From NCBI GenBank assembly GCA_949152475.1, contig OX424564.1, forward strand, positions 37,198,165 through 37,262,164: DNA of 64,000 bases, given 5' to 3'. Under the pieces are notes generated by a model. It saw nothing but the letters and a program-made list of their open reading frames with translations, was not told the DNA's origin and made no database searches. Shown piece after piece: positions 13,042 through 51,294 of the stretch (the stretch's first letter is position 1; every line of letters begins with the position of its first letter). The position numbers were made by a program, and so were the translations under genes. The DNA is from Terebella lapidaria (taxonomy: Eukaryota > Annelida > Polychaeta > Terebellida > Terebellidae).

Positions 13042-15328
13042 AAAACTAGACGTCAAGGCCTAAAGATGCCTTGGAGGCATTTCGGTGTGATGAATAATTT
13101 ATAATACTAGATATCGACGAAAATGAAAAATGTCGACAAATTTCGGGTCAAGGTCAAAGTTCATCCATAATACCCGCTAGATGTTAGTCTAGGGCGACGA
13201 GTCCGAAAATACCATCCGTTTCGCTCTACGACGCACCGTTTCCGAGATATCGACGAAAACAAAAACTGCCGACTCGGCAAAAAAAATTCGGGTCAAGGTC
13301 AAAGTTAATCCATAATTAGAGATGGCATCGAATGTCGCGACATTCATGCATCGTGATATTTGAAGTTTGACGACGTCGCGATCTGCATTTTCCCGACATC
13401 GCATCGTCAGTTTTAACAATTCAATCAATCTTTTCAATGCTAGACGTCCAGATTTTCATACATTTTCGGTGTGTCAGATTCAACGCATGTCAGATGTCAA
13501 TATCCATGATATAAGCTTATGCCGACATCGTATGTAACACGTATTGTGATTGGATGGTGAGAATATCCCATACGTGACGTCAGGTTTCCTAAAATCATTT
13601 GATTGTGACTGCGCATGCGCCTGTTCATGCTCGCCCGCCCACATGATGGAAAGGAAAAAATAACAAACACAAGAGAATTGTATCAGTTTATCGAAAATTC
13701 AGGGCTTTTTCAGGCCATATATTGACATTATATCATATTTAATACTAAGATATGCACTCACGTAGTGTTATATACCATGAATACGAGTACGAGATAATCA
13801 GTGTCCACAGTTATGTCGACATGTGTAGATCGCGATTTGAACTTGCCGACGTCGCGACTTAAAAAAAAATCACGATGCCATCTCTATCCATAATACCCCT
13901 TAGACATGTTTGTCTAGGGCGACGAGTCCGAAAGTAACGTCCGTTTCGCTCTACGACGCACCGTTTCCGAGATATCGACGAAAACGAAAAATGCCGACTC
14001 GGCAAAAAAATTTCGGGTCAAGGTCAAAGTTCATCAATAATTCCCCTTAGACATGTTTGTCTAGTGCGACGAGTCCGAAAATAACGTCCGTTTCGCTCTA
14101 CGAAGCACCGTTTCCGAGATATCGACGAAAACGAAAAATGCCGACTCGGCAAAAAAATTTCGGGTCAAGGTCAAAGTTCATCAATAATTCCCCTTAGACA
14201 TGTTTGTCTAGTGCGACGAGTCCGAAAATAACGTCCGTTTCGCTCTACGACGCACCGTTTCCGAGATATCGACGAAAACGAAAAATGCCGACTCGGCAAA
14301 AAAATTTCGGGTCAAGGTCAAAGTTCATCCAAAATACCCCTTAGACATGTTTGTCTAGTGCGACGAGTCCGAAAATAACGTCCGTTTCGCTCTACGACGC
14401 ACCGTTTCCGAGATAACGACGAAAACGAAAAATGCCGACTCGGCAAAAAAATTTCGGGTCAAGGTCAAAGTTCATCAATAATACCCCTTAGACATGTTTG
14501 TCTAGTGCGACGACTCCGAAAATAACGTCCGTTTCGCTCTACGACGCACCGTTTCCGAGATATTGACGAAAACGAAAAATGCCGACTCGGCAAAAAAATT
14601 TCGGGTCAAGGTCAAAGTTCATCCATAATTCCCCTTAGACATGTTTGTCTAGTGCGACGAGTCCGAAAATAACGTCCGTTTCGCTCTACGACGCACCGTT
14701 TCCGAGATATCGACGAAAACGAAAAATGCCGACTCGGCAAAAAAATTTCGGGTCAAGGTCAAAGTTCATCAATAATTCCCCGTAGACATGTTTGTCTAGT
14801 GCGACGAGTCCGAAAATACTGTCCGTTTCGCTCTACGACGCACCGTTTCCGAGATATCGACGAAAACGAAAAATGCCGACGGCAAAAAAATTTCGGGTCA
14901 AGGTCAAAGTTCATCCATAATACCCCTTAGACATGTTTGTCTAGTGCGACGAGTCCGAAAATAACGTCCGTTTCGCTCTACGACGCACCGTTTCCGAGAT
15001 ATCGACGAAAACGAAAAATGCCGACTCGGCAAAAAAATTTCGGGTCAAGGTCAAAGTTCATCCATAATACCCCTTAGACATGTTTGTCTAGTGTGACGAG
15101 TCCTAAAATAACGTCCGTTTCGCTCTACGACGCACCGTTTCCGAGATATCGACGAAAACGAAAAATGCCGACTCGGCAAAAAAATTTCGGGTCAAGGTCA
15201 AAGTTCATCCATAATACCCCTTAGACATGTTTGTCTAGGGCGACGAGTCCGAAAATAACGTCCGTTTCGCTCTACGACGCACCGTTTCCGAGATATGCAG
15301 GATGAATCAAGGATGACTCAGCAAAAAA
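13042..15328. repeat. 147-bp satellite, block 1
   Basis: Monomers recur every 147 bp (for example the GACATGTTTGTCTAG start at 14,050, 14,197 and 14,344). Each carries TTTCGCTCTACGACGCACCG and the motif TCAAGGTCAAAGTTCA. The block opens with CTAGACGTCAAGGCC and closes with GATATGCAGGATGAATCAAGG. It holds about 11-12 monomers and is interrupted by a hAT-type element at 13,317-13,886. Most monomers are nearly identical, so the array has been homogenised recently. Confidence 0.95.
13317..13886. mobile_element. hAT-type non-autonomous transposon (570 bp)
   Basis: Perfect 14-bp terminal inverted repeats (TAGAGATGGCATCG) are flanked by an exact 8-bp target-site duplication, TCCATAAT (13,309-13,316 and 13,887-13,894). 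Both features are typical of hAT elements. The target is a 147-bp satellite monomer, and uninterrupted monomers elsewhere show the empty site. There is no transposase. The element carries a CRE-like TGACGTCA (about 13,574) and an NRF1-like TGCGCATGCGC (about 13,610). Confidence 0.92.
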
Positions 15329-17077
15329 CTAGACGTCAAGGCCTAAAGATGCCTTGGAGGCATTTCGGTGTGATGAATAATTTATAATACTAGATATCGA
15401 CGAAAATGAAAAATGTCGACAAATTTCGGGTCAAGGTCAAAGTTCATCCATAATACCCGCTAGACATGTTTGTCTAGGGCGACGAGTCCGAAAATACCAT
15501 CCGTTTCGCTCTACGACGCACTGTTTCCGAGATATCGACGAAAACAAAAACTGCCGACTCGGCAAAAAAATTTCGGGTCAAGATCAAAGTTAATCCATAA
15601 TACCCCTTAAACATGTTTGTCTAGGGCGACGAGTCCGAAAGTAACGTCCGTTTCGCTCTACGACGCACCGTTTCCGAGATATCGACGAAAACGAAAAATG
15701 CCGACTCGGCAAAAAAATTTCGGGTCAAGGTCAAAGTTCATCAATAATTCCCCTTAGACATGTTCAAGGTCAAAGTTCATCAATAATTCCCCTTAGACAT
15801 GTTTGTCTAGTGCGACGAGTCCGAAAATAACGTCCGTTTCGCTCTACGACGCACCGTTTCCGAGATAACGACGAAAACGAAAAATGCCGACTCGGCAAAA
15901 AAATTTCGGGTCAAGGTCAAAGTTCATCAATAATACCCCTTAGACATGTTTGTCTAGTGCGACGAGTCCGAAAATAACGTCCGTTTCGCTCTACGACGCA
16001 CCGTTTCCGAGATATCGACGAAAACGAAAAATGCCGACTCGGCAAAAAAATTTCGGGTCAAGGTCAAAGTTCATCCATAATACCCGCTAGACATGTTTGT
16101 CTAGGGCGACGAGTCCGAAAATACCATCCGTTTCGCTCTACGACGCACCGTTTCCGAGATATCGACGAAAACAAAAACTGCCGACTCGGCAAAAAAATTT
16201 CGGGTCAAGGTCAAAGTTAATCCATAATACCCCTTAGACATGTTTGTCTAGGGCGACGAGTCCGAAAGTAACGTCCGTTTCGCTCTACGACGCACCGTTT
16301 CCGAGATATCGACGAAAACGAAAAATGCCGACTCGGCAAAAAAATTTCGGGTCAAGGTCAAAGTTCATCAATAATTCCCCTTAGACATGTTTGTCTAGTG
16401 CGACGAGTCCGAAAATAACGTCCGTTTCGCTCTACGACGCACCGTTTCCGAGATATCAACGAAAACGAAAAATGCCGACTCGGCAAAAAAATTTCGGGTC
16501 AAGGTCAAAGTTCATCAATAATACCCCTTAGACATGTTTGTCTAGTGCGACGAGTCCGAAAATAACGTCCGTTTCGCTCTACGACGCACCGTTTCCGAGA
16601 TATCGACGAAAACGAAAAATGCCGACTCGGCAAAAAAATTTCGGGTCAAGGTCAAAGTTCATCCATAATACCCCTTAGACATGTTTGTCTAGTGCGACGA
16701 GTCCGAAAATAACGTCCGTTTCGCTCTACGACGCACCGTTTCCGAGATAACGACGAAAACGAAAAATGCCGACTCGGCAAAAAAATTTCGGGTGAAGGTC
16801 AAAGTTCATCAATAATACCCCTTAGACATGTTTGTCTAGTGCGACGAGTCCGAAAATAACGTCCGTTTCGCTCTACGACGCACCGTTTCCGAGATATCGA
16901 CGAAAACGAAAAATGCCGACTCGGCAAAAAAATTTCGGGTCAAGGTCAAAGTTCATCCATAATACCCCTTAGACATGTTTGTCTAGGGCGACGAGTCCGA
17001 AAATAACGTCCGTTTCGCTCTACGACGCACCGTTTCCGAGATATGCAGGATGAATCAAGGATGACTCAGCAAAAAAT
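15325..17077. repeat. 147-bp satellite, block 2
   Basis: This is a second higher-order block of about 12 monomers with the same opening and closing sequences as block 1 but without the hAT insertion. A short extra partial duplication of TCAAGGTCAAAGTTCATC sits near 15,763-15,801. The homologue of the hAT target is intact here near 15,592. Confidence 0.95.
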
Positions 17078-20105: not shown

Positions 20106-20231
20106 ATGTCCGAAACGTGTGAAAGCAGGGAAGATGGGAGACGGCTTCCCAGGTCCAAGTCCCTGCACGCACCACTGGTCAGCAACCCTTTTGTGCACAG
20201 ACTCGGCCTGACAACACGGGACAAGATACAG
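20106..20231 (+). CDS. Acyltransferase exon 1
   Basis: It encodes 42 residues from the chosen ATG, ending in the family-typical NPFVHRLGL stretch before the first membrane segment. The donor is CAG|GTCAGA, phase 0. Confidence 0.85.
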
Positions 20232-23200
20232 GTCAGATCATACTGGCAAAGATCATACATGCATACAACATGCCATGTTGTTTGTTCACTTAACAATACA
20301 CAACCATTGATAGGGTTAATTAGACTTATCAAAGTATTTAGTTTGTAGACCCCTATTTATCTCAGTCAATATTTGTCATCTAGTCTAGAGTCTGTGAATC
20401 GCTGAAGTGGTGTGACAACTCACAAATGCAAGACTGCAATTATTCCGTCATTTGTTAATCACATTTTAAAGATGCCAGATGTACTAGACTCTATTGTGAA
20501 ATTAAACTTCAAATCAGATTATTTAATGTGACTAGATCTAGAGTGTATGTGAGTTCCTTTGAAGTTAATAATACACATATAGATTCGACTGCACATATGG
20601 TTCCATGTACATGTATTACTGCACTACATGTAATATGAGCCCCAGGTATGGCAATGAGTCTAGACAAAAAAATTCAATTTAAACCTAATTTATATCTTCT
20701 AAGTAGGTATAGTAAGTGAGTAATTTTTATTTTCAAATTGCACACAAGATGAACATATTCAATAGATGGTATGAGAAAGGTACGATTTGTGGACCCCACC
20801 AGAGGCCGATGCCTGTATTACTTGATTGTTCAAGCAATGAAGCCCATTAAATTGAAATAATAGTAACACAAAATATGGAGCGGATAGGAACAAAATATTC
20901 GCAAGCTGGACTCGAGTATAAGTTGCATACTACATATAACAACATCACAAACATGTAGATATATATACATTAATTCCACGTAGAAATACACATATGACTA
21001 CATATGTTTTATTAATGTATGTTTTACAGATTGCGGTGATGTCTGTGACAATTGTGCCGATTCGTCTACTGATCATGTTCATCCTGCTTGTCATGGGCTG
21101 GCTGTGTGCCTTCATCACACTAGTGGGCCGTACGAAGGAAGAAATAAGCCAGCCCATGACCGGTTGGCGTCGGTAGGTGTTGATGTGATAGTCATATAAC
21201 CATTCAATGCTTTGGAATGCTTTGAATGAATATCGTGATTATGCCTAGTTTGAAATACAACATGAAATTTAGTTATTTGCTTGGAGATATCAAATTAGTG
21301 AAATGATTTATCGTTACTACAATTGCAATCACAGGACATTGATGTAGTCTCATGATTATGGGTTTGTGGCATATATATATATTGTATAATGTGGCGAATT
21401 ATTTGGCTGTTCGAGACACATGATTATGTTACGCATCATAAAGTAGCTAATTAAGTCATTGCTTGCAATCTGAATATGTATATACTAGCAATACTTCCCA
21501 ATGTTATGTGCAATAGACGGAAATTATTTCCTAGTACCGGTAGTCAAAAATTCACTGCAACTAGTAAAATGGCGAACTTTTTTACACCTCAGTGCGAATT
21601 ACACTCAATTTATGTATTTAGCATGTTTATATCTGCATCAGTGCGAGATAACATGACTCACTGTCATGCGACTTGTGTGTGTGTGCACATATGGTCCGTA
21701 TGATATTTATCAGCAAATATTGAGGTTCCCTGACCTGCAAATATCATTTAACCATCTGACATGTGATTGCGAAAATTTACATTTTCTTTTATGATGTTGG
21801 ATCAGTCCCAACATTATACAGACAGACAGACTCTTATATTTCTTTTTATAATAAATTGTAATTATCACATGATTAGAATATGTTATATATATTAGGTTGC
21901 CAGTATGCAAGTATTTATGTATTTGACTTTTCTACATCCTACATGTACACGCCAGACTGTCAAGTGAGAATGCGTAGTTCAATAGGTCATGCACTCATTG
22001 ACCTATTCACACATACATATTGTATACTGTAAACGTACTAATCTTTGCGGTGGATTTATTTCGCGGATTTCGCGATAATATCAAAACCGCAAAATTAAAT
22101 CCACCGTAAAAATGCGTCCATATGGGAGAACGAAGTAAAACGAAGGCAGAACCGCAAAATTAAATCCACCGCAAAACGTCTGAGGTACATAACCGCAAAA
22201 TTAAATACCCGCAAAATTAAGAACGTTTACAGTAGTTGCCAAAAGTTAACATATATATGCTGTTATTTTATTATTACATACCGGTAGTTCAGAATGCGCA
22301 ATCATGTCATGCAACTCAGACTTTCAACTATTGACATTTTGTATTGATATTAAGAGGAGTTTACATGGTACATACTGCTCGGCATCATTTCAGAGCACCT
22401 AGATATATGGGAAATCAATAACGCCAGTGTTGGCAGAAATCATTGTATTCAAATGCTTTTTCTGTACAACAGTTATACATGATTGATATAACACATACGA
22501 TGATTAGTTTTTTACTTGTATTGATTCGTGACTAGTATTTTATTAGGGAAACACATGTAGAGAAAATACTACTAGTAATAATAAACAGACACAAATAATA
22601 GTTATTTTGTACATGTTTCATGCACTTCAAATCACTTATATAGCTATTTGTATTGAATTCATACCAATTGTAACATTTAGCTTATAAATACTCGTAGAGC
22701 TAGCAATGTACCCATGTTCTAATATTTCTCAATAGTTGTTGTACAATACAGAAAACACAATATGTGTCAGATTATTACCGGTATATCTATATCCATTACC
22801 GGTAGTGCTGGTGGTGTCAGGGCAATTCATGATACTGATAAGGTTATAGCAGTGGTTTGTGGTTGAAATTGTTTGGATCTATTATTTATGACAAACGTTT
22901 GCCCTGTACAGACTGTCTGTGTGACCGTTCTACCAAAATGATGTTTGCCCCTTGAAAATATCTATAGATTTAATAATTTACGACATTTCTTGCATGCAGT
23001 CATATTATACAGAAAGGATTCGGTAAATCAGGCATGCTAATCATGTTTGAAATGTGGCATGTATGCTATTATACTTGCTAAGTTGCTACACACACATGCC
23101 AGTAATCACTATTTAAAAACTTGAAATGGAATCTGTTGATGACAAATTTTGCTATTTTCAATTTCCTTGTGCTCATAGGACCGCAATATAGCGGCTGCTT

Positions 23201-26200
23201 GTGTCTCCAAGTATTGATTCTATTATGTAGGGGCAGGTGCCAATAGACCCACAGCTTGCCGTGGTTACCAGCTGGTTAGGTTCCAGGCCTGGGGGAGGAG
23301 GGGGGGGGGGGTGAAGTGGGGGTCAAGTACTTGGCTGGTGAAAAATTAACCAAATTAATTTATCAATACCAGATCTAAATATATAAGGTATTTATTGTCA
23401 AATCTCTAGATTTGGCTAGATAGAGCCTTTAGAAGTCTCCAATGGTCAGATCAATGTTGATTAATCCCTTTTAAGAGCAATCAGTATTCATTATTAAAAG
23501 CCATTCAAGTTGTTCCAGGGCAATGCTGCATACTGAGATCTACATTTTGTATGTGAATGACAATTGGGACAGTCCACACTGAGTCATTGTATCATGTTTA
23601 TGATATTGATCATTATAAGCATGATAAGGGAGACATTGGGCATAACAGCTGGTTGTCTGTAACCTTTCACAGCCTTCTCAAGTGTTTAGCTTTAATATAT
23701 TGATCATATTGGCGAAAATTTGTACCATCCTTTCTAAAATACACATGAATTATGTATCAACTGATGGGCTTCTTTTGAATTTACAAATTATTTTTTGACT
23801 GATAAAGTCGTTGTCATTGAAAATTCTCATCCAGGCTGTATCATGAGTGCTTAAAGCAAACAGCTACCAATCCCACCCTGAATGACTGTGATCATTCGTC
23901 TGCACCTTAAATTCAAATCACTCAGCCACCTCCGACACCGCATTGCTTTTCTGCTTGCAGTGCCATTCGACCTCTGTCCGTCTTCTTTTGCCGAGCAGTG
24001 TTTTTTGTCGGTGGTTTCCACTGGGTGACCATCAAGGGCCGACGAGTCACTTCCAAAGAGGCACCTATCCTAACAGTCGCCCCTCATTCGAGCTACCTCG
24101 ATGCAATTCTCAGCATCAAATTTGGACTTACTTCTACGGTTGCGAGAGCCGGCTCAGACGAAGTTCCGTTTTTCGGCAGTAGGTGTCCCACTGTTCACTT
24201 CCCTGTCTACTCATGCTGTACATATCTATATCTATTGTTTTCTGTTGTCATCTCTTGTTTGCTTGACCATCCGGTTATATGCTGCTTTTCCTGTATACAT
24301 GTACTTGTGTTAGATAAAGACTCTAGAGACAAGGCTTTCTCTGTATGTTCCAAAAAGTAGATGTATATTTGCTTTTCTATCAGTACTGCAAAAACTATAT
24401 TACTATTTTAATGTAAATTTAATATGATGGGATACTAGTACTAGTATGTTGTAGAAAATTATAATTCTGGTCAAAAGTTCCACAATATGAGGTTTTTGCA
24501 GTGCTGATAAAAGTTCTGCGGATTAGACACTGTACAGTCCTCGCTCGCTATCTTCATACTTTCTGTTTGTACATACATTCTGATACTTGGAACAAGTTCA
24601 AAATTTATGACGTTACCGGTAATCGTCATTATGGAGCTGTCACTGAGCACTATTGGTAATACTACAGGTAATTCGAATCCAGAATTTTCTTGTGGTTTTT
24701 TTACTGACCAAACTTTACCAGCAATATGTAGTGTACCTCCTGAACAGAGGTGGCAGTCCATCCCACGTCTTTGAATTGAACTTGTCTGTAGCCCAGTACA
24801 TGTTGTAACAGCACATGTACATATTGTACAGGTCCACAGCCTAACATGTATTTCTCATTTTGGTGATTGTGACAGCTCTATATTTCTGAACAGTTGCATG
24901 ATCATGCTTCAGTTGTACATATTGTGTGTTGGTTGTCATGGTAATGGTATGTGTGAATAAATCCAGCTTGTGCATGATGTATAACCAGTCAGTGCTTATC
25001 AGTGCCACATATCCTGTAAATATGCTGATTTTTTGTGAAATTCATGAAATCGTTTTTTTTTCATCGATGAAATTTCTCCACAGGATGCCAGGATGAGAAA
25101 ATTTCCCCCCAAAAAGACAAACACCAAACACATGCTCCCAACTACATAATTATGTACCACAATCTAAATAGAATCGTTGAAATCGACCTCACAATATTTT
25201 TTCTTCGCACATTGCTCCTCCCCCCCCCCACCCCCCCCCCCATGTGTCCTTGCTGTCTACCCATCTCCCGTTGCCATGACTGCACCAGACACATGGACTG
25301 GCCAACCTGGGCCTTTCTGCGAGGTGCGATGTTCATGTTGGGCTTCCAGTATGTCCGTGTGCGCGGTCGCCAGGCGTCCGCATCCGTGGCCCCTGTCCTG
25401 GTCGCGGCACCACATTCGTCCTTCCTAGACGGCATTGTCATCTTCATCCTGCGACACATTCCTAGTGTTGTTAGTCGCGTCGAAAACGCCCAAGCCCCCG
25501 TACTCGGCAGTACGTATTGCACTCGCACGCCCCACGGTGTAGATCTCTTGGAGTGCTTCAGTCTTCAGGATGTATAAATTACTTTGATAAGCAAATAATA
25601 ATAATAAAAAAACATTTTCTGACATGCTAACGGACATCCTGAAGGCACCTTGTATATAACTGCTGATTGGAGTTGCTGTACATAATATGCTACCTGTTTG
25701 TATCGACAATCCTTTTAATCACGTTAATTAAGGATACATGCTAATACTAGAACTGGTTACTAAGCTACTAAATCAAGCATGCTTGCCCTCACTCAGCTCA
25801 GGTGAATTCGGTTACTGACTGTGCCCAGTTCTGGAACCTGTTCCATCAATTTCCAATTGACGGTCAAAAAACTGTATGTTCATGTCATACACCTGACGAA
25901 ATCACAAGATTTACTGAAACTTATAAGGTCCTCAGTGGGTCCAGTGTACATCCATGCAGCATGTGCAATATAGTTTAACGGCCTTGAACTATTATTTCTT
26001 TTTGCTGGGTCATCCTTGAGGCTCCCTGTAATTCGGCCATTATTTTGGGACACATGGCCCGAGAAAAACATAGTTACTGGTTGAAGTGTGATAGATTGGG
26101 CATGTTGGCTGCATAGACATTGATTATAGATGGAGTAAATATCAGTGAAAAATTGGGTTGACCCGATCGGGACTCGAAGCAGGGACCGTCCGCTTCAACG

Positions 26201-29200
26201 CTTGCCGGGCGACTGGTGGAGTAGTCTATAATCAATATTTACGTGTGTTAGGGATGGACTTGAACCTCCACCTATTTTTGGGTTACCGGACCTAAGTGGG
26301 GCTTTGGTTATGTTGGAAGAACTTTTTCCTTAAATGCCTTCAACATTTTCAAGGCATCTTTATATACTTTTAGACCTTTGCGTAACATATGATATATTTA
26401 CCAATATTACAAAGAGAGTTGGTTGCATCTATTTCATATACTGCATGGGTGCAAACTGAACCCATCGGAACTTTACCTGGTGATTTCTGGTGATTTTGAT
26501 TTACAGTGTAAATAAATTGGGTCAGATGGGCATATTCGGCGTAGTGCTTGATATAGAACTTTCCAGGACTGGGCACAAATTTGACAATCAGTTATGCCCC
26601 CCTCCTTCCCACACCTCTTCAATATGCTCCATTGTGCATGTATTCGCTTGCAAATTAAAATACTATGAAATTCGTTTTCTTCCAAAAACTCCTTCATGTT
26701 CCATACATACATTTCACAATGGATTCTGTACATTTATACTGGACATGAAAAGCTTTCATCATTGGTTACACCTGACTTTTTTTCTTCAGGTTTCCGGACC
26801 TTTGGTCCGATAACCTGTTATTGTGGGTTGCGTCCGTCGCCAGTCCGTTCACATTTTAAGCTTTAAAGTTTATGGTCGAATCTTTCTGAAATTCTGCCAA
26901 AAAAATATCTTTTTTTAGATTTTCGCTTTTTTTCCCGAAATGGCTCAGTTTTGTCCTTTGCCGGCCATTTTCTCAAAAACTGTGTGATCAGTTTTGTTTC
27001 AAAAGATTCCCTTTACTAGTATGTATAGTACTTCTGTGATATGTATAAGTTTGGTTGCCATTGAATCACCGGTCTGCGCGTGGTGGCCATTTTGATTTTT
27101 TGATGGGTGGGTAAAAAAAATTTGTTTTGGCCCCATATCGCTTTACTATCCATTTTGGGCCATTTGTGGACCCAAAAAAAAATTTCCTTTGAAAAAAATT
27201 TTGGACTTTTTTCGGCACTTTTTAGCTTACCGGCCCTTTGGGCCGATAAGCTATTGTCGTGGTATTTCGTCCGTCGTCCGGCGTCCGTCGTCCGTCCGTC
27301 GTCCGGCGTCCGTCGTCCGTCCGTCGTCCGTCCGGGTCTGTAACTTTTTTTTGACATGATGAATTTCCCCATAAATTTGTCAGAACATACCTTGGGCCAG
27401 TATCTAAAGACGTTTTTAAATTTTTTTTGATTGAATCGTTTTGGCCTATTTGGCGGCCATTTTTGACGAAAAATTGCCAATTTTGGACTTTGGAGGCCAT
27501 TTTCTCAAAAACTGTCTGATCAGTTTTGAGATTTTCGTTTCAAAACATTCCTCTCATGTACCTTTATGATGTGTATAAGTTTCGTTGCCCTTGAATCGCC
27601 GGTCTGCGTGTGGCGGCCATTTTGATTTTTTGACGGGACGGCGAAAAAAAATTTTTTTGTCCCAAATCAAGTCACTATTCGTTTTGAGCCATTTCCAGCA
27701 AAAAAAAAAAAAAAAAAAAAAAAAATTTTTGGCCATTGAAAAATTTTTTGGACTTAAAAAATTTCACCCAATTTCCCTTCATAATGGGAGCTGTGCAGAG
27801 TAAACTCATAGAACACTTGAAGATAGAGCCTAAGTATTGGCACATTCAAATGGGAAATCATATATTGTGGTTTGGGTTATGACCTTGAATTTGACCTTCA
27901 ATGACCTTGGAAGATCAAAACGACCTTTTTTGTCGAAAAATGGCCAATTTTGGATTTTTGATGGCCATTTTCTCAAAAACTGTCTGATCAGTTTTGAGAT
28001 TTTTGTTTTAGAACATTTCCCTCATGTACCTCTATGATGTGTATGAGATTCGTTGCCCTTGAATCGCCGGTCTGCGTGTGGCGGCCATTTTGATTTTTTG
28101 ACGGGTCGGCTAAAATTTTTTTTTTGTCTCAAATCAAGTCACTATTCAATTCGAGCCATTTCCAGCAAAAAAAAACAATTTTTTTTTTTTGGCCATTGAA
28201 AAATTTGTTGGACTTAAAAAATTTCACCCAATTTTTCCTTCATAATGGGAGCTGTGCGGAGTAAACTCATAGAAGACTTCAAAATAGAGCCTAAGTATTG
28301 GCACATTCAAATGGGAAATCATATATTGCGGTTTGAGTGATGACCTTGGATTTGACCTTCAATGACCTTGAAAGGTCAAAAACGATGAATTTTGTCTTTG
28401 GTGGCCAATTTGTCAAAATCTATTCAGACAGTTTTTCTCAAAATAATGTATAAGATTCTCTTTATCTACCTTTGTGATGTGTCACTTGATTTCGTATTAT
28501 AGTCCATGCAGAAAATGTGTTTCCAGCAACATTTACGAACATGTTTTGACAATTAGAGTTCAAGATCAGTGTAACAATTTATATGTTGGAAAATCAATAC
28601 TCTGAGTTTCTCATGATTGCCGGTAAGCTACAGCACCCTTGGTGCTATGTTTTCCTTCATAATGGGAGCTGCCGCCACAGTACTCATAGAACGCTTGAAG
28701 ATAGAGCTTGGATATTGGCACTTTCAAATAGAAAGTCATATATGGCGATTTGTATGGCGATCTTGAATTTGACTTTTGATGACCTTGAAAGGTCAACACA
28801 GCCGGTTGTGTGTAAAAAATGCCCAAATTTGCTTCTACAGACAAAATGCTTGTAGATAGAGCTTATGTCTGCATTATGAGCATATAGGAATTCGTATATG
28901 GAACATCACTTACTAATGATGACCTTGAGCTTGATTTTGGATGACCTTGAGTGCTAAATGTCTGACGTGAAGTTACACCTGACATTGAATGTGTGTTAGC
29001 CGCTACAGACAAAATGGTTAAGCTAATGGCGACTCTTACGGTGAGGCTGAACTTGACCAAGATGGCCTTGACTGGTGAATTTCGAGGTCATCTCTGCAAT
29101 GGTCAGAACTAAAATTGTCTGGTAACCTATTTTAGCCGTTGGGTTAATTTTTTTATGGGCAAGTATCCATCAAATTTATTATGTAGTAGTATCAGGAGAA

Positions 29201-32200
29201 AATGACTCTTTTAAAAAGACTAAACTATAAGAGAAACTATCACTTTATTTTACATCATGTATTCATAAAAGTCATTCCAAAATCACAATACATGTATTTA
29301 CAAAAAGGTCCTACTTATGCACAAACTGTTGACTCATACTGTAAACCCATTAATGTTCGCTACCTTTCTAGTTTTGCAGATTTCGCTCCTTGAACAAAAT
29401 TCCGAACTTTAATGAATGTATTGAAAATTACATGAAAATGAACAAGACCCAAATTTAAATGGTTGGCGAACAGTCAATATTCCAGAAACTCGAACATTAA
29501 TGGGAGTCAATTTAAATGGGTTCACAGTAATATAATGGTGGTGAAAATAATTGATATGTTTTGTATTACCATAAAACTTTTGTGTTACATTTCAGTTTTT
29601 CTCATTTCTATTTCTCCTGTATTCAATGTTCAGTTCTCTTTTCATGGTGTTTACTGCATGTATCTTTCTAGATGTGCTGTTTTACGGTTGAACTTTGGGA
29701 ATATCAATACATAATATAACATGGATAATGACTTCAATATTCAGACTTGTATAAAGTGCATATTTATGTACCCATGTCATAATCATTGTAGTTTTACAAG
29801 ATGATGGTAATAAAGTTGAAATAACTAGAAAATATTAATCAGCTGTTAATATAGCTAAAATAGGATTTAAAAAAAAACTATTATAAATATAGTGTGTCTA
29901 CTGTCACGTATCATATTATATCCATTTCCAAATACTCTCTATTTTCATCTGTCGCCAGCGTTGACAAACTTCACACAGCCAGTGCTCGTATCCCGAGAGG
30001 ATCCTAACTCTCGACAGAATACGATCAAAGAGATCAACCGGCGCGCAAACTCCGGAGGTGCCTGGCCACAGGTGCTCATCTTTCCAGAGGGCACCTGCAC
30101 GAACCGGTCCTGTCTCATCGCATTCAAACCAGGTAAGGTCACCATATGTAGGGGGCAACACGGAGTATTAGCTTTTCTCTTCTGGGTTTCCCACATGTTT
30201 TCTGATACAGAAAAAGAGAAATCCTCTGTAATGATGTGAACGTTTATCTAATGTATGATTTTACATTATGGATGTGCCGTATGGAACATAATGTATGTTG
30301 TGTTTACATTGTTGTCTGTGAGTTATTGAAATGTTTCCTGTTGCTATGGTACCCAGGCGCATTTTACCCAGGAGCTCCTGTTCAGCCGGTCTGCATCAAG
30401 TACCCCAACCGACTGGTCAGTAGCAGTTAATACACTGTCCAATTTAAAGTCTCACTTCAATTCCGATATATTTTCGTACCGGTATATGTATTAACTATAT
30501 TTTAGTACCCGGTACACTTAGTTGTGGTGTTCCATTCACTAAATGTCTCAGTTTTCTATACCATTTACCAAGTGATGGAGTTTTAAGGAAGTTGTACATT
30601 TACTTCCAACATATACAATACACCTTTATATGATATTTATTTCTCTAGGACACTGTGTCATGGACGTGGGATGGACCGGGAGCGTAAGTCCGGAAATGTT
30701 TCAAACGTTTTCAAATTTGAGTTTTCAGATCGGTTAGAATGTTTAGAAAATATACAGATCTTTAATGCTTGGTTACTTGTACTTCGAATCTAAATTTATA
30801 CAGTCATGCGTGTATCTACATAGAAAAAAACATGGTTTATATTTGAATCATTGCAGGTTTTCTGTTCTATGGATGACGCTCTGCCAGTTCCACACCGCTT
30901 GCGAGATCGAGGTCAGAGTTCACACTAAGCTTTATTGTTTTCATTTTTTTTGTAAAATTTATATACATTTATTATGATTACGTATGACTTTGGGTGTATT
31001 TCCGGAAATTGTGGTTCTGTAGTATGAAAAATCGTAGTATTTCTGCCTACATACATCTAAATCGTGATTTACGAATTTTTATAAATTTGTCTTCTTTGAT
31101 CTCACACTTCGAAAGTTACGTTGATATATATGTATAAATATATGCATCAATTAACCAATATAATATAGCAAGATGGAATAAATGACACTAAATATTGCTT
31201 TAAAGAAAGCGTATCAACATTATACCGGTAATTGTCAACTGACTTCCGGATCACAAGTTCACAGAACCAACTATCCCACCCCCGTAGAAAGAAGATGCTG
31301 TTCCCTAGAACTGAATAAATCATGTCTTACAATCTTTTTTGATGTTCATTTCTCATTTCAGTTCTTGGACGTCCATGTTCCAACCGAGGCCGAGAAACAG
31401 GATCCTCGGCTGTTTGCAAAAAACGTCCAAGACAAGATGGCAAAGTAAGTCACATCTGGTACTGTGCTGTGGGGGTGGGCCAAAATGTATTCACTGTCAT
31501 TGACTATATAACCATTGATACAGTGTTCACATCACATCGGGGATCGATGACTTTTCTGAATGTGATCCAATTTGTAACATATTTTCCAAGTATTGAGTTG
31601 ATAAATGTCTTGCTTTCATGTTAAAATTGTCACTGAAAATTAGTTGCTCAGTTTGTGGCCAAGTGTAAATGTATTGGGTTTTCCCAGGGCTCTGGACATC
31701 CCGACCACTGACCACACATTTGAAGACTGTCGACTGATGTTGTACGCATCCAAGCTCAACTTTCCCGCGGCCTCGGGGCTCGTCGAGTTCCAAAAACTCA
31801 GCAAAAAACTTGGGTGAGTATCTGACAATGGTCCATGGAATTCAAGTACTTTGCAATATACTATGATGAGAAATCTTACTCAATATTGATAAATAAATTT
31901 TAATAAAAGTTATGTTATGACTTTGCCTGTCAGTATGAGCTATGACAACTTGAAGGAACACCTGAAGAAGTTTACGATGATCGCGCAGGACAACAAGGGC
32001 CATGTTACTTTGGATGAGTTTGCCAAGTTTTTAGAGCTGCCGGTGTCGGATACGCTCAGAGAGATGTTTGAACTCTATGATAGGGTAAGTTTTCTGCCGT
32101 GGCGATACTGCTAATAGCTATATTATGCTACATATCAGTTGTTGTCATGTTGCATTGTATTAGGTGTACAAAAATATGAAATGTTGAATGAAAAAACCAT

Positions 32201-33377
32201 AATGATTTACAGTACTGTGATGATAATGATTTACAGTACTGTGATGATAATGATTTACAGTACTGTGATGATGAAGTTTGAATAAATACAACGTAACTTC
32301 AATATAACCCACCAACATGATTCACGCATGATTAATAGACTCTGATACATTTTTGCGCTGTTTCCCCACAGGACGGCTCGGGGACGATAGATTTCCGGGA
32401 GTATGTCATCGGGCTCCACGTCGTCGCAAAACCTGCAAACTCGGAGGATATGATCAAGTTTGCATTCGAGGTCTGTGTTGAACGGAAATTAGATCTAATT
32501 TTTTGTCAAAATTATTGTAATGATATAATGTACATGCAAATTTATTTAATGATACTTTAGATTACTGTATTGATACAAACATAATGATACATACCTAATT
32601 AATGATACAGTACAATTTAAATATACCTAAGATTATTGTAATGATACCAACGTAATGATACATACGAAATTTACGATACAGTAACATTTGATATCATGAA
32701 AATGAGTTTGTTGGCCTGAGTGGTATCAGTTGAGATGTAATACATCTTCATGTACATGATGTATCTATTTTGTGACTACTGTTTGTTGTCTCAGGTGTTC
32801 GACTCGGGCAATAAAGGCTACATCACGGAGACAGAATTGTCAGAGATTCTACACAACGCCTTCGGGATGGAACAGACAGATGTCGCCAAACTTTTTGCTC
32901 AAGTCGATGCTGACAGTGACAACAAAATCACCTTTGGTACTTATATAAATGTATTTCATGCATATTTGTTTCTCAATAAAAACTTATAGTGATATTATAA
33001 TACCTGTTAAATTGAATGAATATATTAGAAGCACTGGTAGCTTACTATTTGAGAGAGGGAACAATGTTTTAGTACCAGTATATTTAAATCAAGCACCTGA
33101 TGACAGAAACTCATCAATCACTAGAGCATGTTCTTGTTTGAAAATAAGTTTGACCAGAGTAAATGACTTCCCCAGACCTCTGTGAGGCATAAATTGTCTG
33201 AACTCATCCCTTACAGACGAGTTTAAGCAATACGCAGAGAAGCGGCCAGAGTATGCTCGACTATTCATGTCGTACCAACAGCTGCAAGCCACACAGACAG
33301 AACAGGAGGCCCTGCGCCTGTCTCAGGAGTGGGGGGTTCCACAGGCCAACGGAAATCCCAAGGTCAAGGACGAATGA
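20106..33377 (+). CDS. LPCAT1/2-like: Lysophospholipid acyltransferase with C-terminal EF-hands, 13 exons plus an alternative exon 3
   Basis: This ER-membrane enzyme would transfer an acyl group from acyl-CoA to lysophospholipids (Lands cycle; PAF synthesis in LPCAT2). The splice model is 20106-20231, 21030-21172, 23961-24178 or 25289-25509, 29959-30132, 30357-30415, 30649-30683, 30857-30911, 31362-31444, 31688-31813, 31934-32084, 32372-32470, 32795-32936, 33217-33377. All junctions are GT-AG and phases agree. It gives 523 residues (524 with the other exon 3), close to human LPCAT1 (534) and LPCAT2 (544). Visible features are NPFVH, a membrane segment in exon 2, HX4D in exon 3, FPEGTCTNRS in exon 4, YPGAPVQPV in exon 5, EF-hand loops in exons 10-13, and a C-terminal KVKDE that fits the KXKXX ER-retrieval pattern. 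An upstream in-frame ATG exists at 19,989, but 20,106 gives the family-like start. Confidence 0.92.
20232..21029 (+). other. Intron 1
   Basis: AT-rich intron with no gene or repeat recognised. Confidence 0.8.
21030..21172 (+). CDS. Acyltransferase exon 2 (membrane segment)
   Basis: The acceptor TTTTACAG lies just before 21,030 and the donor is CG|GTAGGT, phase 2. It encodes a hydrophobic stretch (VPIRLLIMFILLVMGW) followed by PMTGWRR. The latter matches the TGWRR that precedes the catalytic domain in LPCAT2. Confidence 0.9.
21173..23960 (+). other. Intron 2
   Basis: AT-rich intron containing one MITE (22,025-22,234) and a G-run near 23,294-23,311. Nothing else was recognised. Confidence 0.8.
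22025..22234. mobile_element. 210-bp MITE with internal CCGCAAAATTAAAT repeats
   Basis: The ends are inverted copies of TACTGTAAACGT (left TACTGTAAACGTAC, right GAACGTTTACAGTA), inside a TA context. The body holds several copies of CCGCAAAATTAAAT, one in inverse form near the left end (GCGGTGGATTTATTTCGCGG). It has no coding capacity. Confidence 0.8.
23961..24178 (+). CDS. Exon 3a: LPCAT1-like catalytic core
   Basis: This 218-nt exon starts after CTGCTTGCAG and ends before GTAGGT, entering in phase 2 and leaving in phase 1. It encodes VGGFHWVTIKGR and LTVAPHSSYLDAI, carrying the HX4D acyltransferase motif (HSSYLD). The wording is closest to vertebrate LPCAT1 (GGFH..., TLAPHSSYFDAI, recalled from memory). 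It is one of two alternatives with exon 3b and shares about one third of its residues with it. Confidence 0.9.
24179..25288 (+). other. Intron between exons 3a and 3b
   Basis: About 1.1 kb, with a long C-rich tract (about 25,219-25,241) that forms part of a polypyrimidine region 50-70 nt upstream of the exon 3b acceptor. It could bind splicing regulators such as PCBP or PTB proteins. That is inference. Confidence 0.6.
25289..25509 (+). CDS. Exon 3b: LPCAT2/4-like catalytic core (alternative to 3a)
   Basis: This 221-nt exon starts after TGCACCAG and ends before GTACGT, with the same phases as exon 3a and one extra codon. It encodes FLRGAMFMLGF, LVAAPHSSFLDGI and PSVVSRVENAQAPVLG. These stretches resemble LPCAT2 and LPCAT4 (AAPHSTFFDGI, PSMVSRNENAQVPLIG, recalled from memory) rather than LPCAT1. 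The HX4D motif is HSSFLD. Splicing both 3a and 3b gives a stop at 25,426-25,428, and skipping both gives a stop at 30,005-30,007. The frame therefore allows only one of them per mRNA. Confidence 0.88.
26150..26230 (-). mobile_element. tRNA-like SINE remnant
   Basis: On the minus strand the segment contains CTTCGAGTCCCGATC, close to a pol III B box, after a GC-rich clover-like stretch. No convincing A box or full acceptor stem is present, so it is more likely a SINE or tRNA remnant than a tRNA gene. Confidence 0.35.
26788..27223 (+). mobile_element. Hairpin-headed repeat family, truncated copy
   Basis: It starts with a 29-bp hairpin (26,788-26,816: AGGTT/AACCT outer stem, CGGACC/GGTCCG inner stem, TTT loop) followed by TGCGTCCGTCGCC. 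It shares the internal GGCCATTTTCTCAAAAACTG motif with the following copy, which begins before this one reaches an end. Confidence 0.7.
27224..29147 (+). mobile_element. Hairpin-headed repeat family, long copy
   Basis: It starts with a 29-bp hairpin at 27,224-27,252 (AGCTTA/TAAGCT and CGGCCC/GGGCCG stems), then a CGTCCGTCGTCCG-rich stretch (27,268-27,336). Internal units with GGCCATTTTCTCAAAAACTG follow (about 27,500 and 27,960), then TGACCTTGAATTTGACCTT-type units. It ends near GGTAACCTATTTTAGCCGTT and a T-run. There is no coding capacity and the class is unknown. Confidence 0.7.
29959..30132 (+). CDS. Acyltransferase exon 4
   Basis: The acceptor is TGTCGCCAG and the donor CCAG|GTAAGG. It encodes QPVLVSREDPNSR and the second catalytic/acyl-acceptor motif FPEGTCTNRSC. 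It fits both exon 3a and exon 3b in frame. Confidence 0.9.
30357..30415 (+). CDS. Acyltransferase exon 5
   Basis: It encodes AFYPGAPVQPVCIKYPNRL, the PG-PVQP substrate-binding motif of the family. The acceptor is TACCCAG and the donor CTG|GTCAGT. Confidence 0.9.
30649..30683 (+). CDS. Acyltransferase exon 6 (35 nt)
   Basis: A small exon encoding DTVSWTWDGPGA, matching the DT-TWTWQGPGA region of LPCAT1. The acceptor is TTCTCTAG and the donor GC|GTAAGT. Confidence 0.88.
30857..30911 (+). CDS. Acyltransferase exon 7
   Basis: It encodes FSVLWMTLCQFHTACEIE, matching the WLTLCQFH region of LPCAT1. The acceptor is CATTGCAG and the donor GAG|GTCAGA. Confidence 0.88.
31362..31444 (+). CDS. Acyltransferase exon 8
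   Basis: It encodes FLDVHVPTEAEKQDPRLFA and the following NVQDKMAK, equivalent to the EFLPV-P-EEEK region of the family. The donor is AA|GTAAGT, phase 2. Confidence 0.88.
31688..31813 (+). CDS. Acyltransferase exon 9
   Basis: It encodes IPTTDHTFEDCRLMLY and GLVEFQKLSKKLG. The TDHTFEDCRLM stretch resembles LPCAT2. The donor is GG|GTGAGT. Confidence 0.88.
31934..32084 (+). CDS. Acyltransferase exon 10
   Basis: It encodes HVTLDEFAKFLELPVSD and FELYDR, the start of the EF-hand region; the last Asp is position 1 of the next calcium-binding loop. The donor is AGG|GTAAGT. Confidence 0.88.
32201..32272. repeat. 24-bp repeat, three exact copies
   Basis: AATGATTTACAGTACTGTGA followed by TGAT repeats three times in intron 10. 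Each unit contains the palindrome TACAGTACTGTA minus its last base. Confidence 0.9.
32372..32470 (+). CDS. Acyltransferase exon 11 (EF-hand)
   Basis: With the end of exon 10 it gives the canonical 12-residue EF loop DRDGSGTIDFRE, followed by YVIGL as in LPCAT2. Intact D1, D3, S5, D9 and E12 suggest calcium binding. Confidence 0.88.
32795..32936 (+). CDS. Acyltransferase exon 12 (EF-hands)
   Basis: It encodes a degenerate loop (DSGNKGYITETE, Gly at position 3) and the first ten residues of a better loop (DADSDNKITF) completed by exon 13. The donor GTACTT is weak. Confidence 0.85.
33217..33377 (+). CDS. Acyltransferase exon 13 (C-terminus and stop)
   Basis: It begins DEFKQYAEKRPEYARLF, completing an EF loop with exon 12, and ends KVKDE before TGA at 33,375-33,377. 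Lysines at -3 and -5 fit the KXKXX COPI retrieval pattern. Vertebrate LPCATs use KKXX-type tails. Confidence 0.88.
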
Positions 33378-38119: not shown

Positions 38120-41100
38120 CACTGTAAGACCACTGCGCAATTGTTTCTATTTGCTGCAGCTATAAAAAGAATCCAGTCCATGGACTACTGTATTCCTTTA
38201 GTTGGAATTACCGTATTGGTCCTAATAATGGCGCATGCCCTAATAGTAGAGCGCCCCCCTCTTTTGCAAAAAAATGTTCGATTTTCGTAACCTTATAATT
38301 CACTTCATATCTTTCTAATAAGATCTTGGAGTGTTCCAATCCACACAGTTATGTTATTTGAATCATAATAAAGGGGACTAAAAACACAGTTATGTTATTT
38401 GAATCATAATGAAGGGGACTAAAGGCTATAGGTATACTATCCAGTGATTTTCTCAAATTTGACCCCAAGTTTGACCTCATTTTTGCGTGCGCTACTGCAA
38501 GAGGTCTTGCTTTGGCTCGTCGTGCTACTATTAGGACCAATACGGTATACAAGAATTAAACCTTCCTGCAACTGTTTCTCTCTGTTGCAGATTCAAAAAC
38601 AAAAATCTATGCCCTACTGTGTTCTTTTTGCTGGAGTTACACTCAAATTCAGTCTTCATGCAACTGTTTCTTTGTTGAAGCTACAAAAAGAACCCAGTTA
38701 CACGACAATCTGGTTTCTGCGCTACTGTTCCTGTTTGCCACAGCTATGAAAAAATACATTCTAGACTATAGACTACTGTGATTCGCTTGTTAGAGTCACA
38801 CAAGAGTTTGACATGGATCCAGTCTTTGTGCAACTGTTCCTCTTTGCTGCAGCTATGAAAATTCCCAAGTCTATGGACTGGTGTGTTTCTTTTGCTGGAG
38901 TCACACACATATCCAATCCCTGTGCAACTGTCTCTCTTCGCTGCAACTATGAAAAATTCAAGTCTATGGACTGGTGTGTTTCTTTTTGCTGGAGTTACAC
39001 ACACTTATCCAATATCTGTGCAACTGATTCTCTTTGCTGCAACTATGAAACATTCAAGTCTATGGACTGGTGTGTTTCTTTTTGCTGGAGTAACACACAC
39101 TTATCCAATATCTGTGCAACTGTTCCTCTTTGCTGCAACTATGAAAAATCAAGTCTATGGACTGGTGTGTTTCTTTTTGCTGGAGTAACACACACTTATC
39201 CAATATCTGTGCAACTGTTCCTCTTTGCTGCAGCTATGAAAAATTCAAGTCTATGGACTGGTGAGTTACTTTTGCTGGATTTACTCAGGAATACAGTCTC
39301 TGTGCAACTGTTCCTCTTTGCTGCAGCTATGAAAAATTCAAGTCTATGGACTGGTGTGTTTCTTTTTGCTGGAGTAACACACACTTATCCAATATCTGTG
39401 CAACTGTTCCTCTTTGCTGCAGCTATGAAAAATTCAAGTCTATGGACTGATGTGTTTCTTTTTGCTGGAGTAACACACACTTATCCAATATCTGTGCAAC
39501 TGTTCCTCTTTGCTGCAACTATGAAAAATTCAAGTCTATGGACTGGTGTGTTTCTTTTTGCTGGAGTAACACACACTTATCCAATATCTGTGCAACTGTT
39601 CCTCTTTGCTGCAGCTATGAAAAATTCAAGTCTATGGACTGGTGTGTTTCTTTTTCCTGGAGTAACACACACTTATCCAATATCTGTGCAACTGTTCCTC
39701 TTTGCTGCAACTATGAAAAATTCAAGTCTATGGACTGGTGTGTTTCTTTTTGCTGGAGTAACACACACTTATCCAATATCTGTGCAACTGTTCCTCTTTG
39801 CTGCAGCTATGAAAAATTCAAGTCTATGGACTGGTGAGTTACTTTTGCTGGAGTTACAGAGGAATACAGTCTCTGTGCAACTGTTCCTCTTTGCTGCAGC
39901 TATGAAAAATTCAAGTCTATGGACTGGTGTGTTTCTTTTTGCTGGAGTAACACACACTTATCCAATATCTGTGCAACTGTTCCTCTTTGCTGCAACTATG
40001 AAAAATTCAAGTCTATGGACTGGAGTGTTTCTTTTTGCTTGAGTAACACACACTTATCAAATATCTGTGCAACTGTTCCTCTTTGCTGCAGCTATGAAAA
40101 CTTCCAGTCTGTGGACTGGTGTGTTTCTTTTTGCTGGAGTAACACACACTTATCCAATATCTGTGCAACTGTTCCTCTTTGCTGCAACTATGAAAAATTC
40201 AAGTCTATGGACTGGTGTGTTTCTTTTTGCTGGAGTAACACACACTTATCCAATATCTGTGCAACTGTTCCTCTTCGCTGCAGCTATGAACAATTCAAGT
40301 CTATGGACTGGTGAGTTACTTTTGCTGGAGTTACTCAGGAATACAGTCTCTGTGCAACTGTTCCTCTTTGCTGCAGCTATGAAAAATTCAAGTCTATGGA
40401 CTGGTGTGTTTCTTTTTACTGGAGTAACACACACTTATCCAATATCTGTGCAACTGTTCCTCTTTGCTGCAGCTATGAAAAATTCAAGTCTATGGACTGG
40501 TGTGTTTCTTTTTGCTGGAGTAACACACACTTATCCAATATCTGTGCAACTGTTCCTCTTTGCTGCAGCTATGAAAAATTCAAGTCTATGGACTGGTGAG
40601 TTACTTTTGCTGGAGTTACAGAGGAATACAGTCTCTGTGCAACTGTTCCTCTTTGCTGCAGCTATGAAAAATTCACGTCTATGGACTGGTGTGTTTCTTT
40701 TTGCTGGAGTAACACACACTTATCCAATATCTGTGCAACTGTTCCTCTTTGCTACAGCTATGAAAATTTCAAGTCTATGGACTGGTGTGTTTCTTTTTGC
40801 TGGAGTAACACACAGTTATCCAATATCTGTGCCACTGTTCCTCTTTGCTGCAACTATGAAAAATTCAAGTCTATGGACTGGTGTGTTTCTTTTTGCTGGA
40901 GTAACACACACTTATCCAATATCTATGCAACTGTTCCTTTTTGCTGCAGCTATGAAAAATTCAAGTCTATGGACTGGTGTGTTTCTTTTTGCTGGAGTAA
41001 CACACACTTATCCAATATCTGTGCAACTGTTCCTCTTTGCTGCAACTATGAAAAATTCAAGTCTATGGACTGGTGTGTTTCTTTTTGCTGGAGTAACACA

Positions 41101-50870: not shown

Positions 50871-51294
50871 TAGCTAACATCCCCAAGAAGGTGTGCACCG
50901 GTCATTCAATAAGATGCTATACATTAATGTATAAACCCTGTTAAACCCTGATGTTTAACTTTCCTTTTTACGTCTTGGTTACGTCCACGTTATCGAGTAC
51001 AACCAACGAGTGCTAACCAAAAGTTATCCAACTAGTTTTTGATGTCACGGTGAAGTCGTTATCGTGCGTGACCGAGTTTTAATTGTGTGGATGGTTGTGG
51101 GGGATGGATACATTTAGGGGTAAGAGAGGTATGGGGATGTGTAAACGCACACTTAGCAGTGATTATAATCAGAAAGGCCGTGTCACAGACACTGTCACAG
51201 AGATCTATATACATGTGGAGATGTACTTCATTTTTATCCACATTGACCAACATCATTGATATTGCTTCATGACACACAGAAATAAACCGCGAAA
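50871..51294 (+). promoter_or_regulatory. 5' flank of the Toll-like receptor gene
   Basis: The sequence immediately before the receptor ATG. No TATA box or NF-kB-type site was convincingly seen. Confidence 0.35.

What the first reader, a model, noticed from the sequence alone, without database searches (positions are those of the whole stretch)
23961..25509. Mutually exclusive duplicate exons encode the catalytic core of one acyltransferase gene
Exons 3a (218 nt) and 3b (221 nt) enter and leave in identical phases, both have good AG/GT sites, and both encode the same domain with an HX4D motif, at about one-third amino-acid identity. The frame polices the choice: splicing 3a to 3b gives a stop at 25,426-25,428, and skipping both (exon 2 to exon 4) gives a stop at 30,005-30,007. 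Only one-of-two mRNAs encode full proteins. Alternative exons that swap an enzyme's active-site core are rare, and I know of none described for LPCAT genes.
Basis: partly seen in the sequence, partly recalled or inferred. Interest (0 to 1): 0.92.

Follow-up and report, generated by a model that had tools for sequence, protein, structure and literature searches.

The report
Enzyme gene with two swappable cores
An animal lipid-remodelling gene carries two alternative versions of the exon that holds its catalytic residues; one looks like the vertebrate enzyme LPCAT1 and the other like LPCAT2/LPCAT4, so one gene may make two kinds of enzyme that vertebrates make from separate genes.

Summary
Confirmed at sequence level. 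The window holds a complete 13-exon animal gene (20106-33377, +) for an LPCAT1/2/4-type lysophospholipid acyltransferase (PlsC domain plus EF-hands, 523/524 aa). Exon 3 exists twice, 3a (23961-24178) and 3b (25289-25509): same phases, both open, both with HX4D, 35-38% identical. No transcript data were available, so splicing is inferred.

In an exon-3 tree this split has 98% bootstrap, and a one-residue difference in motif 1-2 spacing goes the same way. This rests on human sequences I recalled, whose motif positions agree with a published table. Best reading: one ancestral gene made both enzyme types by alternative splicing, and vertebrate paralogues each kept one exon.

Active-site mutually exclusive exons, and their partition among paralogues, have precedents (FYN, KHK, ACSL6). 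My searches of one open-access library showed no report for LPCAT. It is a new case of a known kind, unusually informative because the two exons match enzymes whose substrate preferences are already known.

The parts
20106..20231 (+). exon 1 (from the start codon), N terminus
   Evidence: open frame, GT donor; NPFV motif shared with recalled LPCAT1/2/4
21030..21172 (+). exon 2, hydrophobic N-terminal membrane segment; ends phase 2
23961..24178 (+). exon 3a, LPCAT1-like alternative catalytic exon (motif 1 HSSYLD at 24085-24102)
25289..25509 (+). exon 3b, LPCAT2/LPCAT4-like alternative catalytic exon (motif 1 HSSFLD at 25413-25430)
25426..25428 (+). stop codon met if 3a is joined to 3b
29959..30132 (+). 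exon 4, shared; motif 2 (PVLVSR) and motif 3 (EGTC)
30005..30007 (+). stop codon met if exon 2 is joined to exon 4
30357..30415 (+). exon 5, shared; motif 4 (PVQP)
30649..30683 (+). exon 6
30857..30911 (+). exon 7
31362..31444 (+). exon 8
31688..31813 (+). exon 9
31934..32084 (+). exon 10 (first EF-hand begins at its end)
32372..32470 (+). exon 11, EF-hand
32795..32936 (+). exon 12, EF-hand
33217..33377 (+). exon 13, C terminus, stop TGA at 33375-33377

Best explanation
This is a single animal gene that is co-orthologous to vertebrate LPCAT1, LPCAT2 and LPCAT4. It makes two acyltransferases by choosing one of two homologous exons 3. Shown: complete open frames with either exon, same phases, early stops with both or neither, intact PlsC domain with either exon, and closer likeness of 3a to LPCAT1 and of 3b to LPCAT2/4 (the last on recalled human sequences). 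Inferred: the exons are spliced one at a time; transcripts with both or neither are removed by nonsense-mediated decay; exon 3 supplies the catalytic His and Asp, the putative lysophospholipid-contact Arg and part of the acyl pocket, while shared exons supply motifs 2-4 and the EF-hands. The 3a form would then work like LPCAT1 (saturated acyl, 16:0) and the 3b form like LPCAT2/4. The exon pair would predate the vertebrate paralogues, each of which kept one exon.
For: Gene model and phases; stops. Pfam PF01553 59.0 bits with 3a and 59.5 with 3b, cut-off 23, plus EF-hands. Between 3a and 3b, codon positions 1, 2, 3 agree at 38, 38, 27 of 72 codons, and of 25 shared residues only 10 use the same codon, as expected of selected coding sequence. 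Exon-3 identities: 3a-LPCAT1 31/71, 3b-LPCAT2 33/71, 3b-LPCAT4 34/72, against 3a-3b 25/72, 3b-LPCAT1 26/71 and 3a-LPCAT4 23/72; 3a-LPCAT2 is 28/71. ML tree: split {3a,LPCAT1}|{3b,LPCAT2,LPCAT4} bootstrap 98; of the 12 topologies without it, log-likelihood deficits are 10.5-12.2 and the AU test rejects 11 at 5%. Motif 1-2 spacing: LPCAT1 37, LPCAT2/2b/4 38 in the published table; 3a 38, 3b 39. Random errors at 10% of recalled residues never changed the quartet in 1000 trials. Fly has one predicted orthologue of LPCAT1 and 2, CG32699, with LPCAT activity (PMC4293825, passages).
Against: No RNA, no second species, organism unknown. The human sequences are recalled (LPCAT4 only residues 1-299). 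One topology joining 3a with 3b is not rejected by AU (p 0.053). A simple identity quartet with LPCAT2 has only 88% column bootstrap (98% with LPCAT4). With 5 bacterial relatives as a distant outgroup, {3b,LPCAT2,LPCAT4} falls to 77 and 3a is not paired with LPCAT1 (56 for another arrangement). Outside exon 3, LPCAT1-LPCAT2 identity (197/447, 44%) is no higher than gene-LPCAT1 (202/442, 46%) or gene-LPCAT2 (215/444, 48%) (summed), so these numbers do not by themselves show that the vertebrate duplication is younger than the split from this animal. No excess of intron-intron RNA pairing was found.
Confidence: 0.7

Rival explanations
1. Mutually exclusive exons, but duplicated independently in this animal's lineage; the likeness of 3a to LPCAT1 and 3b to LPCAT2/4 is convergence or noise over about 72 residues.
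For: Short alignment; AU test does not reject one 3a+3b topology (p 0.053); outgroup-rooted tree is weak. Parallel origin of exon pairs in different animal groups is common (PMC9741552, passages).
Against: 98% bootstrap for the split; diagnostic columns 5 against 1 and 2 (LPCAT2) and 6 against 1 and 2 (LPCAT4); shared spacing difference.
Confidence: 0.15
2. 3b (or 3a) is reached by an alternative promoter or first exon, so the two are alternative but not classical mutually exclusive cassette exons.
For: Not excluded without RNA; intron 3a-3b is 1110 nt, and 10 ATG-started stretches of 20-55 codons lie in it, several nested.
Against: Those stretches show no recognisable LPCAT N terminus by eye; 3b has an acceptor in the phase that fits exon 2; the N-terminal membrane segment is encoded only once.
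Confidence: 0.07
3. 3b is a relic of exon duplication, no longer spliced in, and only 3a (or the reverse) is used.
For: Weak donors on both exons, 2nd and 3rd lowest of 13; weaker 3b acceptor.
Against: Both frames are open with all motif-1 residues despite deep divergence; 3b keeps 46-47% identity with recalled human LPCAT2/4; third-position excess of change.
Confidence: 0.04
4. An exon from a separate LPCAT-like gene was inserted into this gene (exon shuffling or gene conversion between paralogues), in place of tandem exon duplication.
For: The two exons fit different vertebrate paralogues, and the vertebrate paralogues are as far apart outside exon 3 as each is from this gene.
Against: Needs loss of the donor gene and insertion at exactly the homologous place and phase; tandem exon duplication is simpler. 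One predicted orthologue of LPCAT1/2 in fly.
Confidence: 0.04

Closest known systems
Vertebrate LPCAT1 / LPCAT2 / LPCAT4 (LPLAT8/9/10)
   Same: PlsC (AGPAT-family) domain with four motifs, EF-hands (recalled for LPCAT1/2), similar length, N-terminal NPFV and hydrophobic segment
   Different: Three separate genes, each with one version of the motif-1 segment; here one gene has two versions
FYN (FynB/FynT) and SRC, YES1, FGR, FRK
   Same: Mutually exclusive tandem exons covering part of an active site (ATP site); paralogues each kept one exon (PMC9741552 section 12)
   Different: Protein kinase; FYN itself kept both exons
CACNA1F / CACNA1S
   Same: Reciprocal retention of duplicated exons after gene duplication
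   Different: Ion channel, three exon pairs
ACSL6 / ACSL1 fatty-acid gate exons
   Same: Lipid enzyme whose substrate-gate segment is swapped by a mutually exclusive exon pair (PMC1543647, abstract)
   Different: Acyl-CoA synthetase; short motif, Phe/Tyr change
KHK exon pair
   Same: Swapped region includes a conserved catalytic Arg (PMC9741552, passage)
   Different: Sugar kinase; only one ligand-contact residue in the swapped region

Membership tests
LPCAT1/2/4 (AGPAT-family LPLAT8-10) | PlsC acyltransferase domain | tested here: met
   PF01553 59.0 / 59.5 bits, cut-off 23
LPCAT1/2/4 (AGPAT-family LPLAT8-10) | motif 1 xHxxxxD | tested here: met
   HSSYLD (3a), HSSFLD (3b), residues 132-137
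LPCAT1/2/4 (AGPAT-family LPLAT8-10) | motifs 2, 3 and 4 | tested here: met
   PVLVSR, EGTC and PVQP align to the positions tabulated in PMC8753187
LPCAT1/2/4 (AGPAT-family LPLAT8-10) | C-terminal EF-hands (recalled as typical of LPCAT1/2) | tested here: met
   PF00036 72.5 bits, 2 stretches; PF13499 71.9 bits
LPCAT1/2/4 (AGPAT-family LPLAT8-10) | acyl-CoA:lysophospholipid acyltransferase activity | not testable with these tools
   needs enzyme assay
Mutually exclusive exon pair (criteria as in PMC5740500, passages) | neighbouring exons of similar sequence and length, same reading frame | tested here: met
   218 and 221 nt, phases 2 to 1, E about 8e-12
Mutually exclusive exon pair (criteria as in PMC5740500, passages) | joint inclusion absent or leading to frameshift | tested here: met
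   by frame only: TAG at 25426-25428
Mutually exclusive exon pair (criteria as in PMC5740500, passages) | bridging splice-junction reads for each exon | not testable with these tools
   no RNA data; no genome held for the window
Competing-RNA-structure class of mutually exclusive exons | complementary intronic elements | tested here: inconclusive
   best tile pairings within the range of 10 shuffles for all 3 intron pairs; about 1 kb of each intron tested, one species

The most novel reading that the evidence does not exclude
The common ancestor of bilaterian animals had one LPCAT gene that encoded an LPCAT1-type and an LPCAT2/4-type enzyme through mutually exclusive exon 3 choice. The vertebrate split between the surfactant-lipid enzyme LPCAT1 and the PAF-making enzyme LPCAT2 is a former splice choice turned into separate genes, and this 72-73 residue segment sets substrate preference.
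Probability: 0.45. Interest if true: 0.78.

Novelty: new member of a known kind. Interest (0 to 1): 0.6.

Why it matters
Which part of LPCAT1 and LPCAT2 makes one prefer palmitoyl-CoA and the other acetyl-CoA is a practical question for lung surfactant and inflammatory lipid biology. If one animal gene swaps just this segment on a constant scaffold, nature has done the domain-swap experiment, and the segment becomes the obvious place to look. It would also add a lipid enzyme to the few cases where a splice choice was later divided between paralogous genes.

Tried and rejected
Looked for a genome of the source organism: none held. Looked for relatives: solved structures gave only bacterial PlsC 5kym at E 0.19, with a query of 3b plus exon 4 alone; viral contigs none; phages none; plasmids 2 weak bacterial hits; bacterial and archaeal genomes gave 14 loci, 13 named as Sphingomonadales or genera in it and 1 Clostridia, matching both isoforms about equally, so no animal sequence for comparison. 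Tested intron-intron pairing as the source of exclusivity: nothing beyond shuffles. Looked for an alternative first exon before 3b: nothing convincing by eye. No structure prediction was run: the tool takes proteins that the DNA gives letter for letter, and the spliced proteins are not contiguous in the window. First exon boundaries were wrong for exons 5, 9, 12 and 13 and were mended.

Literature: ten searches were made, seven of them with an LPCAT term. One search (LPCAT with 'mutually exclusive exons') found 6 papers, none on LPCAT exons by title and abstract start. One search listed 20 of 161 papers, none of the 20 holding the word LPCAT; one search listed 12 of 135, none holding the LPCAT term. 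Lists were capped and only open-access papers are held, so absence is not proven. Annotation databases (FlyBase, Ensembl, NCBI) could not be consulted.

Full report
The observation. I built the whole gene by hand from the sequence: 13 exons, of which exon 3 comes in two versions, from the start codon at 20106 to TGA at 33375-33377, every intron GT-AG, and a continuous frame of 523 aa with 3a and 524 aa with 3b. The product has a PlsC acyltransferase domain (PF01553, 59.0 bits with 3a, 59.5 with 3b, cut-off 23) and EF-hands, and aligns along its length with recalled human LPCAT1 and LPCAT2. The window gene is thus an LPCAT1/2/4-type gene of an animal that I could not identify; no genome is held for it.

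More than chance. 3a and 3b are homologous: tblastn of one finds the other in the window at E about 8e-12, and no other copy in the 64 kb, the remaining hits having E above 1. On the + strand between exons 2 and 4 there are only 4 clusters of open, phase-matched AG..GT segments of this size, two being 3a and 3b. Their differences look like those of selected coding sequence: codon positions 1, 2 and 3 agree at 38, 38 and 27 of 72 codons, and 25 residues are kept with only 10 identical codons.

The frame. Exon lengths 218 and 221 both leave remainder 2, so only one may be used. Both together stop at 25426-25428, neither stops at 30005-30007, both far upstream of the last junction, so such mRNAs would be expected to be removed by nonsense-mediated decay (inference). 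This is usual for such exons: in a human-fly comparison 20 of 28 genes had incompatible frames (PMC5740500, passage). The intron between them is 1110 nt, so crowding of splice sites is not the cause of exclusivity. Donor scores of 3b and 3a are 2nd and 3rd lowest of 13 with an approximate matrix, which would suit regulated exons. I found no excess of pairing between introns over 10 shuffles in any of 3 intron pairs, testing about 1 kb of each. How the choice is made remains open.

What the exon carries. In the published description of LPCAT2, His146 is catalytic, Arg166 and Arg195 may contact the phosphates of lyso-PAF and acetyl-CoA, motifs 1-3 form the cavity and motif 4 backs it (PMC8753187, passages). 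By alignment, motif 1 (H132, D137) and the Arg166 equivalent (R152 with 3a, R153 with 3b) lie in exon 3, while motif 2, motif 3, the Arg195 equivalent and motif 4 lie in shared exons 4 and 5. The swap therefore replaces the catalytic residues with the same residues but rebuilds their surroundings.

Which exon is which. As a check, the starts of motif 1 (135, 146, 129), motif 2 (172, 184, 167) and motif 3 agree with Table 3 of PMC8753187 for all three, as do the lengths of the two full ones (534, 544) and Arg166 and Arg195 of LPCAT2. In exon 3 the best match of 3a is LPCAT1 (31/71) and those of 3b are LPCAT4 (34/72) and LPCAT2 (33/71), while 3a and 3b share only 25/72. A likelihood tree separates {3a, LPCAT1} from {3b, LPCAT2, LPCAT4} with 98% bootstrap; all 3 topologies with that split are kept and 11 of the other 12 are rejected by the AU test, the exception (a topology joining 3a and 3b) having p 0.053. 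The published spacing from motif 1 to motif 2 is one residue shorter in LPCAT1 than in LPCAT2, mouse LPCAT2b and LPCAT4; 3a is one shorter than 3b. Random errors at 5% or 10% of recalled residues never changed the identity quartet in 1000 trials each, and 20% changed it in 1.5% of trials for LPCAT2 and none for LPCAT4.

Results against. Column bootstrap of the plain identity quartet is 88% with LPCAT2, 98% with LPCAT4. Adding 5 of the 14 bacterial relatives as a far outgroup weakens the picture: {3b, LPCAT2, LPCAT4} 77%, and 3a attaches to that group at 56%, leaving LPCAT1 outside. Outside exon 3, LPCAT1 and LPCAT2 are 197/447 identical, no closer than either is to this gene (202/442 and 215/444; sums). 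That is compatible with an old vertebrate duplication followed by fast change, but also with a duplication about as old as the split from this animal. Fly has one predicted orthologue of both (PMC4293825, passages), which favours one ancestral gene. In a copepod transcriptome two transcripts named LPCAT1 and LPCAT2 share one wasp best hit (PMC3929608, passage), a loose lead.

Explanation. The simplest account is tandem duplication of exon 3 in an ancestral animal LPCAT, use of the copies one at a time, and divergence into an LPCAT1-type and an LPCAT2/4-type segment. Vertebrate paralogues then kept one each. The proposed functions, LPCAT1-like making 16:0-containing PC and LPCAT2-like making PAF, are those of the mammalian enzymes (PMC8753187, passages) and are inference here.

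Known kinds. The phenomenon is of a known kind. FYN swaps part of its kinase ATP site by such exons, and its relatives each kept one; CACNA1F and CACNA1S did the same (PMC9741552, section 12 read in full). KHK swaps a region with a catalytic Arg (same paper, passage). ACSL6 and ACSL1 swap a fatty-acid gate (PMC1543647, abstract). Neither the human atlas (PMC5740500) nor the human/fly/worm survey (PMC9741552) mentions LPCAT in its main text (supplements not seen). I therefore file this as a new member of a known kind.

Verdict. The part most worth following is that the two exons look like two vertebrate enzymes.

Noticed in passing
51292-53869 (+): A leucine-rich-repeat receptor-like gene (Pfam LRR_8 in both halves) that looks by eye like a Toll-like receptor with a C-terminal TIR domain, though Pfam gave no TIR match at E 0.001. 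It runs in one frame to about 51957 and in another from about 51776, so it holds a frame change or a small intron.
   Followed up: partly
53602-53648 (+): A perfect 23-bp tandem duplication inside the same receptor frame; since 23 is not a multiple of 3, its two copies are read in different frames.
   Followed up: no
38827-43064: A 4.2-kb array of a 96-bp unit, about 45 copies, open over long stretches in several frames.
   Followed up: no
13886-17044: A 3.2-kb array of a 147-bp unit with copies about 97% alike in its two largest stretches, upstream of the LPCAT gene.
   Followed up: no
46455-48081 and 44049-45102: Further arrays of 61-bp and 134-bp units.
   Followed up: no
27460-28381: A 468-bp direct duplication inside the intron between exons 3b and 4.
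   Followed up: no
L001-L013: Thirteen loci with titles from Sphingomonadales or genera in it encode PlsC-type proteins with the FPEGTCT motif, about 33-36% identical to the window protein in most best segments (29% in one); they match both isoforms about equally.
   Followed up: partly
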